A stretch of DNA of 42,794 bases, taken from NCBI RefSeq assembly GCF_001879715.1, contig NZ_MNBW01000023.1, positions 1 through 42,794 of the forward strand, given 5' to 3'. The position numbers and the translations under genes were made by a program. The stretch is from Nioella nitratireducens (GTDB lineage: Bacteria > Pseudomonadota > Alphaproteobacteria > Rhodobacterales > Rhodobacteraceae). Under the pieces are notes generated by a model. It was given only the letters and a program-made list of their open reading frames with translations. It had not been told where the DNA came from and did not search any database. Shown in pieces: positions 24,426-33,285 of the stretch (position 1 is its first letter; each line of letters starts with the position of its first letter).

Positions 24426-28854
<4,429 letters not shown>

Positions 28855-28910
28855 GAGCGGCCCTGTTATTGACCATGCGTTAACCACTTGCCTCCTGTTT
28901 GTTCTCATTT

Positions 28911-28925
28911 GTTCTCGTAAAGTTC
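28911..28925 (+). promoter_or_regulatory. LexA-type box (GTTC-N7-GTTC)
   Basis: The sequence GTTCTCGTAAAGTTC is an exact match to the direct repeat GTTC-N7-GTTC, the established LexA operator form in alphaproteobacteria. Another GTTC lies at 28901 and an inverted GAAC at 28949. The box is 69 bases upstream of the small membrane protein and 56 bases after recG. Confidence 0.65.
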
Positions 28926-28994
28926 TTGCTTTTGGGGGCGAGATATGAGAACAAAGCGTTAACACCGCTCTCAGATGTTCAGGAATTGGAAACC

Positions 28995-29117
28995 ATGATT
29001 GATCAGATCCGCCAGATCCTAGACCGTTCTCGTGACTCGCTCGTTTCGGATTTCGTCGGCGTTCTCGCCATTGGCGTGACGACCGTGGTCATCCTGCATC
29101 TGCCCAGTCTGATCTGA
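28995..29117 (+). CDS. Small single-span membrane protein, putative SOS-induced
   Basis: A 40-residue protein with a charged amphipathic N-terminus (about 1-17, IDQIRQILDRSRDS) and one hydrophobic helix (about 19-37, FVGVLAIGVTTVVILHL). No cysteine and no signal cleavage site are seen. The ATG at 28995 has an AGGA about 10 bases upstream; a longer open frame from 28899 would run through the LexA-type box and is unlikely. Size, topology and the upstream box recall SidA of Caulobacter, a 29-residue SOS-induced inner-membrane inhibitor of division. There is no clear sequence similarity to SidA that I can state, so the function is inference. Confidence 0.6.
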   Translation: MIDQIRQILDRSRDSLVSDFVGVLAIGVTTVVILHLPSLI

Positions 29118-29262
29118 CCCCGCCTTTCTGCCTGCGGTCGTCCACCGGAGGGGTCGTGCGGGGTTTGTCCCCAAATTGATCCCGCGCTGTTTCTGCCTCA
29201 AGTGATCCGGGCTCTGCCTGCCCCGGTCCCCCTTTCCGGTCCCAGCCGACACGCATACCTTG

Positions 29263-29299
29263 CCGCCGCCTCCTGCCCCGGAGTGCGGCGGTTTTTTTT
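29263..29299 (+). terminator. Intrinsic terminator downstream of the small membrane protein
   Basis: A 7-bp GC stem (CCGCCGC / GCGGCGG), extended by an inner TCC/GGA pairing, is followed by eight T residues on the plus strand. It ends the rightward transcript from recG and the small gene, just before the convergent Anbu gene. A further 7-bp repeat (29117-29123 with 29158-29164) sits right after the small gene's stop. Confidence 0.8.
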
Positions 29300-29319
29300 C
29301 GCGGGCGAAGGGTAAGGCG

Positions 29320-30060
29320 TCAGGCCTCGGGGAAGGTGAAGCCCGGCAGTTCGGCAAAGGCATTGCGCAGGGCGACCCCCCAGCCGGTCGAGATTTCGTC
29401 GAAATAGGGGTCATCGGCCTGAATGCGCAACTCACGTCCCATGCGCAAGCTGTCGGTGTCGTAGACATGCACGTCCAGCGGCAGTCCGACCGAGAGATTG
29501 GCCTTGATCGTCGAGTCGAACGACACCAGTAGCAGTTTCACCGCCTCTTCGAAGCTCATCGACGGATCGAACGCCCGCACCAGAATCGGCTTGCCGTATT
29601 TGGTCTCGCCGATCTGGAAATACGGGGTGTCGTCTCCCGCCTCGATGAAATTCCCCTCGGGATAGATCAGGAACAGTCGGGGTGCGCCGTCACCGACCTG
29701 CCCGCCTAGCAGCATGGTCGCGTTGAAGGTGGCGCTGGCCCGCTGCCCGGCATCCGCGTGGGTCGAGATCACTTCCTTCAGCGTATCCCCGACCAGCGTG
29801 GCCACCTGAAACATCGACTCGGCCCGGTAAATACTGGGATTGCGTGCGTCGGGGGCCTTGCCGCGTTCCTCCAGCAGGCTCACCACGGCTTGTGTGGTCG
29901 CCAGGTTTCCGGCCGTCATCAGCGTGATGCAGCGGTCGTTGGGCACCTCGAAATGGAACATCTTGCGAAAGGTCGATATGTTGTCGACACCCGAATTGGT
30001 GCGGGTGTCCGACATGAATACCAGCCCGTGATCCAGTTTCAGCCCGACGCAATAGGTCAT
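29320..30060 (-). CDS. anbu: Anbu (proteasome-like beta subunit peptidase)
   Basis: A 246-residue N-terminal-nucleophile protease of the Anbu family, an HslV-like bacterial proteasome relative that forms open helical rings. The initiator Met is followed directly by Thr2, the catalytic nucleophile after processing; Asp18 (FMSDTRT) and Lys33 (TFRKMF) complete the proteasome-type active site. It is the last gene of a four-gene leftward operon, 33 bp after the transglutaminase gene. Known Anbu genes lie with the same partners, and the complex is thought to degrade or process a peptide made by them; its substrate is not known. Confidence 0.93.
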   Translation of the reverse strand: MTYCVGLKLDHGLVFMSDTRTNSGVDNISTFRKMFHFEVPNDRCITLMTAGNLATTQAVVSLLEERGKAPDARNPSIYRAESMFQVATLVGDTLKEVISTHADAGQRASATFNATMLLGGQVGDGAPRLFLIYPEGNFIEAGDDTPYFQIGETKYGKPILVRAFDPSMSFEEAVKLLLVSFDSTIKANLSVGLPLDVHVYDTDSLRMGRELRIQADDPYFDEISTGWGVALRNAFAELPGFTFPEA

Positions 30061-30093
30061 GACGCGCTCCTTGTTCGCGGTCTATGAAGCAGG

Positions 30094-30900
30094 CTATTGC
30101 TGAACTTGCAAGCTGACTTGAAGGTGTTCGTCGCCAGCCCCCTGCCGGATGCCCATGATGGGGGCCGCATCGCGGTAGTCCCGCCCGGTGGCGACCCGGA
30201 CATAGCGGTCATCGGGCGAAATCCCGTTCGAGACGTCGAACCCGACCCACCCCAGGGCGTCTGTCCACACTTCGCACCATGCGTGGCTGGCGGTCTGGTC
30301 GACCCGGTCGTTCATCATCAGGTAGCCCGAGATATAACGGGCCGGTTGGCCCAACAGCCGGGCCGCCGCGATCATCACATGGGTGTGGTCCTGACAGACG
30401 CCGTGCCCCTCTGCCAGCGCGGTTTCGGCGGTGGTTGAACTGTCGGTCCTGCCGGTTTCATAACGCACCTGCCCAAGGATCATATCCGAGAGCGCGTGAA
30501 GCTGCGTCAGCGCATCCGCGTCACCGTGGTCGGCCTTGAGCTGCCGTACCAGGGCCCGCAGGGTCGATCCGGGGGCGGTGAACGGGGTCGCGTTCCTATA
30601 CAGCCATAGCGGCGCAAAGCCCTTGTGAATCCCGATCACGCCGTTGCGGTTCTCGGTCTCGACATGGCCTTGGCAGACGATCTCGATATGTTGTGCGCCG
30701 GGATCGACCTTGATCAGATCGGTGTGATTGACGAACTGGTCGGCATAACTGACCTGCCGCGTGCCGCCGGTTATGGACACGTCCCAATCCAGAACCGTCT
30801 GCCCGTGGCCAGAGCGGGGCGTCAACCGCAGCTTTTGCAACGCGGACCGAACCGGGGCGTCATAACTGTAGCTGGTCACATGCGTGATCTTCAGGCGCAT
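30094..30900 (-). CDS. Transglutaminase-like cysteine protease
   Basis: A 268-residue cytoplasmic protein with an N-terminal beta-rich domain (about 1-100, starting LKITHVTSYSYDAPV) and a transglutaminase-like core. The catalytic triad is visible: Cys169 in GHGVCQDHTH, His206 in ASHAWCEVW and Asp222 in GFDVSNG. Such proteins usually act as cysteine proteases or amidases in the Anbu/ATP-grasp neighbourhood. I chose the ATG at 30900, which has a GAGGT site; an in-frame ATG at 30912 overlaps the alpha-E stop as ATGA and is equally possible. Confidence 0.9.
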   Translation of the reverse strand: MRLKITHVTSYSYDAPVRSALQKLRLTPRSGHGQTVLDWDVSITGGTRQVSYADQFVNHTDLIKVDPGAQHIEIVCQGHVETENRNGVIGIHKGFAPLWLYRNATPFTAPGSTLRALVRQLKADHGDADALTQLHALSDMILGQVRYETGRTDSSTTAETALAEGHGVCQDHTHVMIAAARLLGQPARYISGYLMMNDRVDQTASHAWCEVWTDALGWVGFDVSNGISPDDRYVRVATGRDYRDAAPIMGIRQGAGDEHLQVSLQVQQ

Positions 30901-30908
30901 TGGCGACC

Positions 30909-31853
30909 TCATTGGAAAAACCGGAAATCGGTCTGGATCAGGCTGGCCAGCGTCGCAGTGTCGTTGATCGCATTGGTCAGGAATTCGTGGAGGCCCTCGT
31001 CGAAGATTTCTTCGATGCCGCACCCCCGCAACCGCCGTCCAATGGTTTCGGCCAGATCGTGGCTGCCGTGGCGCTGGCCATAATCATCGGCCAGATCGTT
31101 CAGGTTCTCACAGATCTTCGAGTAGCAGAACGCCAGCGACCGCGGCATACGTTTGTCGATGATCAGGAATTCGGCGATGCCTTTGGGGGTGATGTCGCCA
31201 CCGTTCAGCCAGCGAAAGGACCGCGCCGCCGAAACCGAGCGCAGGATCACCTCCCACTGGGCGTTGTCGATGTGGCTGCCGACGAAGGCGGCCGACGGTA
31301 GCAGCACATAGTATTTCACGTCCAGAATGCGGGCCGTGTTGTCGGCCCGTTCCAGAAAGGTGCCTAGGCGCGAGAAGGCGAAGATATCGTTGCGCAGCAT
31401 GGTGCCGTGCAGCGCGCCGCGCACCACCGAGGTGCGGTAGCGGATCGTCGCCAGATGTTCATACAGGTTGCGTTCCGACACCGGCCGGGCGAGGGCGGAC
31501 TTGAGCGCCATCCAGCATTCGTTCACCGCCTCCCAGACCTCGGAGGACAAGGCGGTGCGCACCATCCGCCCGTTCGATCGGGCGGATTCGATCGAGTTCA
31601 GCACCGAGGACGGGTTGTCCTTGTCCCTCAAAAGGAAGTCGATGACCGGCGCGGCCTCGTACACGTCGTGTTTCTGGCGATAGGCCACGTCCATTCCGGC
31701 GGTGATCACCACCGATTGCCATTCATTGGTGCCCTCGTCGCCGCGTGTCAGGGCGATGCGCCACCCCGCTTCCAGCAGGCGGGCGGTGTTCTCGGCGCGT
31801 TCGATATTGCGGAACATCCAGAAGAGCCCGCCCGCGGTTTTTCCCAGCATCAT
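30909..31853 (-). CDS. Alpha-E domain protein (DUF403)
   Basis: A 314-residue, all-helical alpha-E protein. The start MLGKTAGGLFWMFRNIERAENTARLLE, cut here as GGLFWMFRNIERAENTARL, and the internal FSRLGTFLERADNTARILD are the two related ER-rich signatures of the family. The biochemical role is unknown; it always accompanies the circularly permuted ATP-grasp gene, sometimes fused to it, so it probably works with the ligase. The start is one of two tandem ATGs, 4 bases after the ATP-grasp stop. Confidence 0.9.
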   Translation of the reverse strand: MMLGKTAGGLFWMFRNIERAENTARLLEAGWRIALTRGDEGTNEWQSVVITAGMDVAYRQKHDVYEAAPVIDFLLRDKDNPSSVLNSIESARSNGRMVRTALSSEVWEAVNECWMALKSALARPVSERNLYEHLATIRYRTSVVRGALHGTMLRNDIFAFSRLGTFLERADNTARILDVKYYVLLPSAAFVGSHIDNAQWEVILRSVSAARSFRWLNGGDITPKGIAEFLIIDKRMPRSLAFCYSKICENLNDLADDYGQRHGSHDLAETIGRRLRGCGIEEIFDEGLHEFLTNAINDTATLASLIQTDFRFFQ

Positions 31854-31857
31854 TGGC

Positions 31858-33285
31858 TCAGTCCCCCAGCACCCAGGTGTCCTTGGTTCCGCCGCCCTGA
31901 CTGGAATTGACCACGAGCGACCCTTTCTTGAGGGCAACGCGGGTCAGCCCGCCCGGGGTAATGTCGATCCGGTTGGGCGAGACCAGCACGAAGGGCCTCA
32001 GATCCACATGGCGCGGCGCAAGCCCCGCCTTTGTCAGGATCGGCACGGTCGAGAGCGCGAGAGTTGGCTGCGCGATGTAGTTCGAGGGCCGGGCGCGCAG
32101 TTTTTTCTCAAAGGCGGCGATTTCCTTTTTCGAGGCGGCGGGGCCGACCAGCATCCCGTAGCCGCCCGATCCGTGCACCTCTTTCACCACCAGTTCCGAC
32201 AGATGGTCGAGCACATAGGCCAGCGAGTCCGCCTCGGAACAGCGCCACGTGGGCACGTTCTTGAGGATGGCCTGCTCGCCCGTGTAGAATTCGACGATAT
32301 CCGGCATGTAGGAATAGAGCGCCTTGTCGTCGGCGATCCCGGTGCCGGGCGCGTTGGCGATGGTGATGCCGCCGGCGCGGTAGACGTCCATGATGCCCGG
32401 CACGCCAAGCATACTGTCGGGGTTGAAGGTCAGTGGATCGAGGTAGTCGTCATCCACGCGGCGATAGAGCACGTCGATGGCCTGGAACCCTTGGGTCGTG
32501 CGCATCGCGACGCGGCCGTTCTCGATGCTCAGGTCGTGGCTTTCGACCAGTTCCGCGCCCATCTGGTCGGCAAGGAAAGCATGTTCGAAATAGGCCGAGT
32601 TGTGAATGCCGGGGGTCAGAACCGCCACCACCGGCCTGCCCGAGGTCGCGGGCGGGGCGCAATCGGCCAGCGACCTGCGCAGAAGCCGAGGATACGAGCT
32701 GACGGGTCGCACCTTCATCTGTGCGAACAGTTCCGGGAACATCTGCAACATCGTCTCGCGGTTTTCCAGCATGTAGCTGACGCCAGAGGGCGTGCGCGCG
32801 TTGTCTTCCAGCACGTAGAACTCGTTTTCGCCCGTGCGCACCAGATCGGTGCCCACGATATGGGTATAAACCCCGCCGGGCGGGTTCACGCCGATCATCT
32901 CGGGCAGGAAGGCATCGTTTTTCGAAATGATTTCCTTGGGAATACGGCCTGCGCGGATGATTTCCTGCCGATGATAGATGTCGTGCAGGAACGCGTTTAT
33001 CGCCCGCACCCGCTGGTCGATGCCGCGTTCCAGAACGGACCATTCCCGCCCGGAAATGATACGCGGGACGATATCGAAAGGGATCAGCCGCTCATCCGCA
33101 TCGGCCTGTCCATAGACGTTGAAGGTGATACCGATCCGGCGGAAGAATGCTTCCGCCTCGGACGATTTTCGGCGTAAATCCTTGAGGTCTTCGTTGGAAA
33201 ACCAGCGGTGATAGGCCGAATACGGGGGGCGGGGGGTCTCCTCGCCGACGAGCATCTCGTCGAAGGTCGGGCGTGACTTTGACAT
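31858..33285 (-). CDS. Circularly permuted ATP-grasp protein (type 2)
   Basis: A 475-residue predicted ATP-dependent carboxylate-amine ligase with a circularly permuted ATP-grasp fold. Diagnostic segments are PRIISGREW, NDAFLPEMIGVNPPGG, YVLEDNARTPSGVSYMLEN (metal-binding Glu/Asn) and the late LVVKEVHGSGGYGM and RPFVLVSPN. Family members are predicted amidoligases that build or tag peptides. It is the first gene of the leftward Anbu operon: ATP-grasp, alpha-E, transglutaminase, Anbu. The 235 bp upstream are free of genes and hold the promoter; a TTGACA hexamer is present on the minus strand, but no good -10 is paired with it. Confidence 0.92.
   Translation of the reverse strand: MSKSRPTFDEMLVGEETPRPPYSAYHRWFSNEDLKDLRRKSSEAEAFFRRIGITFNVYGQADADERLIPFDIVPRIISGREWSVLERGIDQRVRAINAFLHDIYHRQEIIRAGRIPKEIISKNDAFLPEMIGVNPPGGVYTHIVGTDLVRTGENEFYVLEDNARTPSGVSYMLENRETMLQMFPELFAQMKVRPVSSYPRLLRRSLADCAPPATSGRPVVAVLTPGIHNSAYFEHAFLADQMGAELVESHDLSIENGRVAMRTTQGFQAIDVLYRRVDDDYLDPLTFNPDSMLGVPGIMDVYRAGGITIANAPGTGIADDKALYSYMPDIVEFYTGEQAILKNVPTWRCSEADSLAYVLDHLSELVVKEVHGSGGYGMLVGPAASKKEIAAFEKKLRARPSNYIAQPTLALSTVPILTKAGLAPRHVDLRPFVLVSPNRIDITPGGLTRVALKKGSLVVNSSQGGGTKDTWVLGD

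What the first reader, a model, noticed from the sequence alone, without database searches (positions are those of the whole stretch)
28901..29117. Candidate LexA-controlled 40-residue membrane protein next to recG
A perfect GTTC-N7-GTTC direct repeat (28911-28925), with a further GTTC and an inverted GAAC close by, stands before a 40-residue single-span membrane protein. In Caulobacter, SidA is a tiny SOS-induced membrane protein that blocks cell division. Seen: box, short gene, hydrophobic helix, intrinsic terminator downstream. Known: box form and SidA biology. Inference: this gene is an SOS division inhibitor or damage-response peptide of Rhodobacterales.
Basis: partly seen in the sequence, partly recalled or inferred. 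Interest (0 to 1): 0.7.

Follow-up and report, generated by a model that had tools for sequence, protein, structure and literature searches.

The report
SOS membrane peptide with structured RNA
Nearly every sampled genome of a large bacterial family appears to carry, usually next to recG, a tiny membrane-protein gene that looks switched off by the DNA-damage repressor LexA, and its message ends in a conserved folded RNA; together they may help to stop cell division after DNA damage.

Summary
The single GTTC-N7-GTTC box is no rarer than chance in this genome, but upstream of this 40-aa gene it is conserved in 104 of 105 protein-selected loci, with a facing GAAC-N7-NAAC in 105 of 105. The same half-sites precede lexA and recA in 30 of 30 genomes each. 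A scan for the operator alone returned 118 loci: 117 have this gene directly downstream and one contig ends first. The protein is found in 346 of 394 family genomes and 237 of 244 of an overlapping sample, is under purifying selection and has one predicted membrane span. LexA control is close to certain; division inhibition in the manner of Caulobacter SidA is likely but untested, and homology to SidA is not shown. New: the ~180-nt 3' UTR is a conserved structured RNA with covarying stems and repeated CUGYCY loops, without an Rfam match. These motifs partly match the ftsZ leader and ribosome-binding site: suggestive, not proven. No paper describing the unit was found in the library searched.

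The parts
28901..28925 (+). Upstream LexA operator: three GTTC half-sites, GTTC-N6-GTTC-N7-GTTC
   Evidence: N6/N7 triple in 93 of 105 and N7 pair in 104 of 105 protein-selected loci; best matrix hit of the window, 24.0 bits
28926..28931 (+). Probable -35 hexamer (TTGCTT here; TTTACA in 71 of 104 loci)
   Evidence: placed by conservation, no start site mapped; the simple sigma-70 scan found no promoter
28949..28963 (+). Facing LexA half-sites GAAC-N7-TAAC, overlapping the probable -10 (GAACAA after a 17-nt spacer)
   Evidence: GAAC-N7-NAAC in 105 of 105 protein-selected loci (the last half-site is scored as NAAC, so it is a loose test); second-best matrix hit in the window
28995..29117 (+). 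40-aa single-span membrane protein gene
   Evidence: 346 of 394 and 237 of 244 genomes (overlapping samples); pN 0.22 against pS 0.65
29121..29261 (+). Conserved structured RNA of the 3' UTR (closing stem P1, hairpins with CUGYCY-type loops)
   Evidence: Model R1 match 43 bits, the only hit listed in the own genome (E 5e-6); covariation; fold z-score -3.4
29262..29299 (+). Intrinsic terminator
   Evidence: a terminator-like end in 98 of 105 loci

Best explanation
This is an SOS gene. LexA dimers occupy two operators that flank and overlap one promoter and keep it shut; after DNA damage RecA filaments trigger LexA self-cleavage and a transcript of about 340 nt is made. It encodes a 40-residue inner-membrane peptide (short N-terminal segment with positive charge, near-invariant Asp19, Gly22, one membrane span, and a conserved Leu-His-Leu-Pro near the far end) that most likely delays cell division by binding a membrane-embedded divisome protein, as SidA does with FtsW. 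The transcript ends in a conserved structured 3' UTR that is probably a regulatory RNA. Shown computationally: operators, coding selection, predicted membrane span, RNA structure, a terminator-like end. Inferred: LexA binding, damage induction, transcript length, membrane orientation, division inhibition, and what the RNA does.
For: Operator conserved in 104 of 105 protein-selected loci and matching those of lexA and recA in the same genomes (30 of 30 each); 117 of 118 operator-selected loci lead into this gene, the last contig ends too early. Near-universal in the family: 346 of 394 and 237 of 244 (overlapping sample). Purifying selection and one hydrophobic span (88 of 89 at or above 1.6). 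No charged residue is among the five commonest at positions 20-34, which suits an anchor that contacts a partner better than a TisB-like pore (inference). No match in 72,556 plasmid and 50,697 phage records, one query each, so probably a core chromosomal gene and not a mobile toxin. SidA precedent: 29-aa SOS-induced inner-membrane inhibitor that interacts with FtsW (PMC4211646, passages).
Against: No binding, expression or phenotype data. Function rests on analogy: no Pfam hit above cut-off and no NCBIfam hit, and no SidA sequence was compared. The facing box is imperfect here (TAAC) and its first base is C in 86% of loci. A small SOS membrane protein could instead tune a transporter, membrane potential or phage/GTA release. 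Some genomes lack a detectable copy (48 of 394; 7 of 244), though at least one of these (G101) has a diverged copy.
Confidence: 0.55

Rival explanations
1. [quoted passage not shown]
For: CUGYCY motifs are conserved while the stems around them vary and covary. The complement RGRCAG in the ftsZ upstream region averages 1.31 in 29 genomes with the gene, against 0.47 in 19 scored as lacking it (which corrects one misplaced row), 0.13 for lexA (30), 0.45 for recA (29) and 0.23 for 297 ORFs of the own genome. AGGCAGAA in 11 of 29 against 0 of 19 and GGACAG near the start in 13 of 29 against 3 of 19. Predicted pairing is at or better than the median of same-genome control windows in 27 of 29 genomes. 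In the own genome 10 perfect pairs; six of 901 ORF upstream regions score better. ftsZ was chosen in advance from the DinR precedent (PMC10907235, passages read).
Against: Only 8 of 29 genomes reach 5% against same-genome windows and 7 of 29 against shuffled UTRs. Six of 901 own-genome ORF regions score better (by eye several look like shadow ORFs, not checked). The genomes are not independent. The ftsZ ribosome-binding site CAGGCGG also occurs in genomes scored as lacking the gene (by eye). One of those 19 genomes (G101) has a diverged gene. No compensatory change between RNA and target was noticed (by eye, not tested).
Confidence: 0.25
2. TisB-like toxin: a damage-induced peptide that depolarises the membrane and slows growth or makes persisters, with a structured message that restrains its translation.
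For: Small hydrophobic peptide behind a LexA-type double operator; structured UTR.
Against: No charged residue among the five commonest at positions 20-34; third GTTC to start codon is mostly 58-78 nt (a set that includes operator-selected loci), leaving little room for a regulatory 5' UTR; no antisense antitoxin came to light, but none was searched for; near-universal, usually beside recG (102 of 105).
Confidence: 0.12
3. The 3' UTR acts only in cis (message stability or translation of the peptide), or is bound by a protein that reads CUGYCY motifs.
For: RNA and gene go together: the model finds no copy in 20 genomes scored as lacking the gene, and only this copy in the own genome (121 or fewer candidates per genome were scored).
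Against: Repeated accessible pyrimidine-rich motifs resemble pairing seeds (inference). Complementarity to the 5' leader or coding region was looked for by eye only.
Confidence: 0.3
4. Not SOS: the GTTC/GAAC array binds another regulator.
For: N6 spacing of the first pair is not the classical N7.
Against: A matrix trained only on lexA and recA operators ranks the site first in the window, and all 105 loci score above the best of 102 control stretches (letter shuffles of the same upstream regions reached 13.4 once, above the lowest real scores).
Confidence: 0.04

Closest known systems
SidA of Caulobacter crescentus (PMC4211646, passages read)
   Same: SOS/LexA-controlled tiny inner-membrane protein of an alphaproteobacterium
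   Different: 29 aa against 40 aa; homology not shown; no effect on division shown here; a structured 3' UTR is not mentioned in the passages read
[quoted passage not shown]
   Same: LexA-controlled short message whose 3' part is, or may be, a regulatory RNA with ftsZ as target
   Different: The protein is DinI, not a membrane peptide; DinR's pairing stretch is specific to Klebsiella, whereas this RNA is found in most loci tested of a whole family; no processing or pairing shown here
DidA of Caulobacter (PMC4211646, passages read)
   Same: Small transmembrane damage-induced division inhibitor
   Different: DidA is induced by DriD independently of SOS
TisB of E. coli (recalled)
   Same: SOS-induced small hydrophobic peptide
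   Different: Pore-forming toxin with an antisense antitoxin
YneA and SosA of Gram-positive bacteria (search listing with starts of abstracts; a passage of PMC10907235)
   Same: SOS-induced division inhibitors
   Different: Other proteins and phyla

Membership tests
LexA (SOS) regulon of Rhodobacteraceae | GTTC-N7-GTTC operator at the promoter, as at lexA and recA | tested here: met
LexA (SOS) regulon of Rhodobacteraceae | Operator conserved between species | tested here: met
   104 of 105 loci
LexA (SOS) regulon of Rhodobacteraceae | LexA binding and damage induction | not testable with these tools
   Needs bench work or expression data
SidA-type division inhibitors | Small single-span membrane protein under LexA | tested here: met
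   the span is predicted from hydropathy only, LexA control from the operator only
SidA-type division inhibitors | Sequence homology to SidA | not tested
   SidA sequence not fetched; profile A1 gave only 4 weak hits outside the family among 289 class genomes, none with a GTTC-N7-GTTC or GAAC-N7-GAAC in 200 nt upstream
SidA-type division inhibitors | Blocks division through FtsW/FtsI/FtsN | not testable with these tools
   Inference by analogy
3'-UTR-derived SOS sRNA (DinR type) | Conserved structured RNA between stop codon and terminator of a message with a LexA operator | tested here: met
3'-UTR-derived SOS sRNA (DinR type) | Pairs with the ftsZ translation initiation region | tested here: inconclusive
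3'-UTR-derived SOS sRNA (DinR type) | Released by processing and active in trans | not testable with these tools
   No expression data
Known Rfam RNA families | Match above a gathering score | tested here: not met
   Window 28600-29500: only RT-15 at 14.8 bits (gathering 82), E 0.6
TisB-type type I toxin | Antisense RNA antitoxin and polar face of the helix | tested here: inconclusive
   Few charges in the span; antitoxin not searched for

The most novel reading that the evidence does not exclude
A family-wide, two-armed SOS checkpoint on one message of about 340 nt: a LexA-controlled membrane peptide that blocks the late divisome, and a multi-loop 3' RNA that silences ftsZ mRNA by pairing with its leader and ribosome-binding site, inherited beside recG in nearly all Rhodobacteraceae.
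Probability: 0.22. Interest if true: 0.88.

Novelty: new variant of a known kind. Interest (0 to 1): 0.68.

Why it matters
How Rhodobacteraceae, which include the roseobacters and gene-transfer-agent models, halt division after DNA damage was not described in any paper found by the searches made. This unit is near-universal in the sampled genomes and gives a single, easily deleted locus for that question. If the RNA arm also acts on division, it would join protein and RNA control of cytokinesis in one SOS message conserved across a family, where the known example (DinR) depends on a Klebsiella-specific stretch.

Tried and rejected
Rejected: 'the box alone is significant' (not beyond chance). 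Rejected: homology with the Pfam baculovirus 11-kDa family (15.5 bits, below the 28.4 cut-off). Rejected: a mobile toxin (no plasmid or phage match; each call used one sequence, the second a relative's). Rejected: a known Rfam RNA. PHROGs: nothing for the window protein; two families each matched by one of 30 members, best E 0.0089. The four weak class-level protein hits lie in longer frames (one with a stop inside) without a LexA box. A mini-ORF starting at the conserved ATGAGAACA was considered and dropped because its frame is not kept (by eye). Scan for sigma-70 promoters: none. Literature searches for a Rhodobacteraceae SOS division inhibitor or an RNA at recG led nowhere.

Results against the reading: the RNA model missed G186, a same-genus genome that has the gene, at the genome-wide threshold (its locus scored 25.5 bits in the local search); 15 of 85 non-seed loci had no RNA hit at E 0.1; six of 901 own-genome ORF regions pair better than ftsZ; one of the 19 'no gene' ftsZ genomes (G101) has a diverged gene; letter shuffles of upstream regions reached 13.4 bits once in the LexA matrix while the lowest real locus has 8.7. 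L209 was left out of the recA count. In the operator logo most rows were selected by the operator pattern itself; the counts used here are from the 105 protein-selected loci. Those 105 come from the hits whose places were printed, mostly the stronger of the 346. The 22 UTRs were picked as well-behaved. Profile A3 contains operator-selected proteins, and the genomes overlap. In A3, Leu34 and Pro37 are nearly but not fully invariant.

Full report
What is there. Downstream of recG (stop 28852-28854) the window holds three GTTC half-sites at 28901, 28911 and 28922 (spacers N6 and N7), a -35-like hexamer at 28926, then GAAC-N7-TAAC at 28949-28963, an ATG at 28995, a 40-codon frame ending at 29117, and an intrinsic terminator at 29262-29299. 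The perfect GTTC-N7-GTTC box is real but on its own not rarer than chance: 3 in the window against 1.1 expected and 139 in the genome against 124 for the reversed pattern.

The gene is real and nearly universal in its family. A single-sequence search found it in 151 of 394 family genomes; a 30-row profile in 346 of 394; a second profile in 237 of 244 genomes of an overlapping order-level sample, whose listed rows are all of the same family. Among 289 class-level genomes 8 matched: four same-family, and four weak hits without a LexA box upstream. At least one 'missing' genome, G101, has a diverged copy behind a similar operator, so absences are overcounted. In 89 sequences of exactly 40 codons (the window's included), third positions vary most and second positions least, and pN is 0.22 against pS 0.65 over 329 pairs with at least 65% identity, so the frame is translated and under purifying selection. 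Gly22, Leu34 and Pro37 never vary in those 89 and Asp19 varies once; in a second set of 40, Asp19 and Gly22 are invariant and Leu34 and Pro37 nearly so. 88 of 89 have a 19-residue stretch of mean hydropathy 1.6 or more. A structure prediction could not be run.

The operator is real. In 105 protein-selected loci, GTTC-N7-GTTC lies within 200 nt upstream in 104, the N6/N7 triple in 93, and GAAC-N7-NAAC in 105. The distance between the third GTTC and the facing GAAC is 23 in 97 of 104, the -35 hexamer is TTTACA in 71 of 104, and the hexamer 17 nt after it is GAACAA in 94 of 104. In 30 genomes the same half-sites precede lexA (30 of 30) and recA (30 of 30). A matrix from 73 lexA/recA sites gives the window site 24.0 bits, the best in the window; all 105 loci exceed the best of 102 control stretches (2.8 bits), though letter shuffles of the same regions reached 13.4 once and the lowest real locus has 8.7. 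The training set includes the own genome's lexA and recA.

An independent test starts from the operator, not the protein. Of these 118, 116 have the gene by HMM within 260 nt, one (L133, with Ns) shows it by eye, and in one (L146) the contig ends first. recG ends just upstream in 115 of 117; in the other two the stretch held starts within 55 nt of the operator. In the 105 protein-selected loci the end of recG lies within 500 nt upstream in 102.

The 3' UTR is a structured RNA. It runs a median of 181 nt from stop to the T run in the 98 of 105 loci with a terminator-like end. CTGCCTG occurs within 200 nt of the stop in 87 of 105 loci and CTGTCCC in 82, against 1 and 0 of 98 stretches 220-420 nt upstream of the gene. 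CTGYCY motifs have mean unpaired probability 0.71 against 0.42 for the UTR body (302 motifs, 90 UTRs). On an alignment of 22 chosen UTRs, 17 proposed pairs form in 91.1% of cells, 16 of 17 pairs have changes on both sides, and slid versions give 22.8-44.1%; the structure was derived from one of the 22, which favours it. Outside that choice, stems of at least 5 pairs around the three motif-bearing loops are found in 58 of 88, 27 of 51 and 25 of 41 loci that have the motif, against 16.3, 9.1 and 8.0 expected from shuffled flanks. The covariance model finds the RNA in 70 of 85 other protein-selected loci (E up to 0.1; a few genomes are in twice) and in none of 9 control loci. In the own genome it finds only 29121-29261; in the 20 genomes scored as lacking the gene it finds none, but it also misses G186, which has the gene (at most 121 candidates per genome were scored). 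Rfam has no match for the window copy. The window fold is more stable than shuffles (z -3.4).

Does the RNA touch ftsZ? [quoted passage not shown] the abstract start was). The complement RGRCAG averages 1.31 in the ftsZ upstream regions of 29 genomes with the gene (ftsZ was not found in the thirtieth), 0.47 in 19 scored as lacking it, 0.13 for lexA (30), 0.45 for recA (29) and 0.23 for 297 ORFs of the own genome. AGGCAGAA is in 11 of 29 against 0 of 19, GGACAG near the start in 13 of 29 against 3 of 19. With opening costs, ftsZ pairs at or better than the median same-genome window in 27 of 29 genomes, but only 8 of 29 pass 5%, and 7 of 29 against shuffled UTRs. In the own genome GUUUCUGCCU pairs perfectly with AGGCAGAAAC of the ftsZ leader; no one of 297 other regions scores as well, but six of a larger set of 901 do better. 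Phylogeny confounds the comparison. I treat it as a lead.

How it most likely works. Two LexA sites flank and overlap one promoter, which suggests tight repression. After damage, LexA cleavage releases it. The peptide has the anatomy of SidA, a 29-residue inner-membrane protein that acts on FtsW (PMC4211646, passages), and I think it delays division in that manner. Homology is not shown, so it is not filed as SidA. Passages of PMC6473078 report predicted LexA sites in Dinoroseobacter shibae at lexA, recA, dprA, pde2, flagellar, pilus and GTA genes; recG does not occur in that main text. Its supplementary tables were not read. That a Rhodobacter capsulatus lexA mutant is filamentous is recalled, not found here.

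Novelty. Searches of the open library listed no paper that by title or abstract start describes the gene or the RNA; of the listed papers, passages of five were read. Subscription papers are mostly not held. The protein has no match in NCBIfam and none above cut-off in Pfam. I rate it a new variant of a known kind: an SOS small membrane protein, joined to a conserved 3' RNA.

Noticed in passing
28869-28883: TTGA-N7-TTAA, one mismatch from the CtrA-type TTAA-N7-TTAA site (motif recalled), lies between recG and the LexA operator; the same-genus locus L002 shows similar TTAACC repeats (by eye).
   Followed up: no
L190, L178-L207 (lexA upstream): Many lexA promoters carry a run of three half-sites, GAAC-N7-GAAC-N7-(G)AAC (by eye); in the own genome all three are perfect.
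   Followed up: partly
L208-L237 (recA upstream): recA promoters carry GAAC-N7-GAAC (30 of 30) and often an upstream GTTC-N7-GNTC-like facing pair (by eye), a two-box layout like that of the small gene.
   Followed up: no
protein-selected loci, recG stop to operator: Distances cluster at about 7, 18 and 29 nt (11-nt steps): 17-18 nt in 46 of 96 loci scored by a simple pattern. Some loci (L027, L029) have a fourth GTTC half-site.
   Followed up: partly
L298 (G101): Diverged 42-aa homologue, missed by the profiles, behind an operator-like stretch and followed by CTGTCTG and CTGTCCC motifs.
   Followed up: partly
L378, gene that looks like murF: Its predicted upstream region also pairs well with the window RNA (-12.4 kcal/mol); the gene name is from recall of the protein start.
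   Followed up: no
29320-33285: Convergent downstream genes: proteasome-like protease, transglutaminase-like protein, Alpha-E protein and circularly permuted ATP-grasp protein. The protease was not found as downstream neighbour in any of 117 named loci, 99 of which hold more than 1200 nt downstream.
   Followed up: partly
31788-31802: Another perfect GTTC-N7-GTTC, inside the Alpha-E coding region on the opposite strand; probably chance.
   Followed up: no
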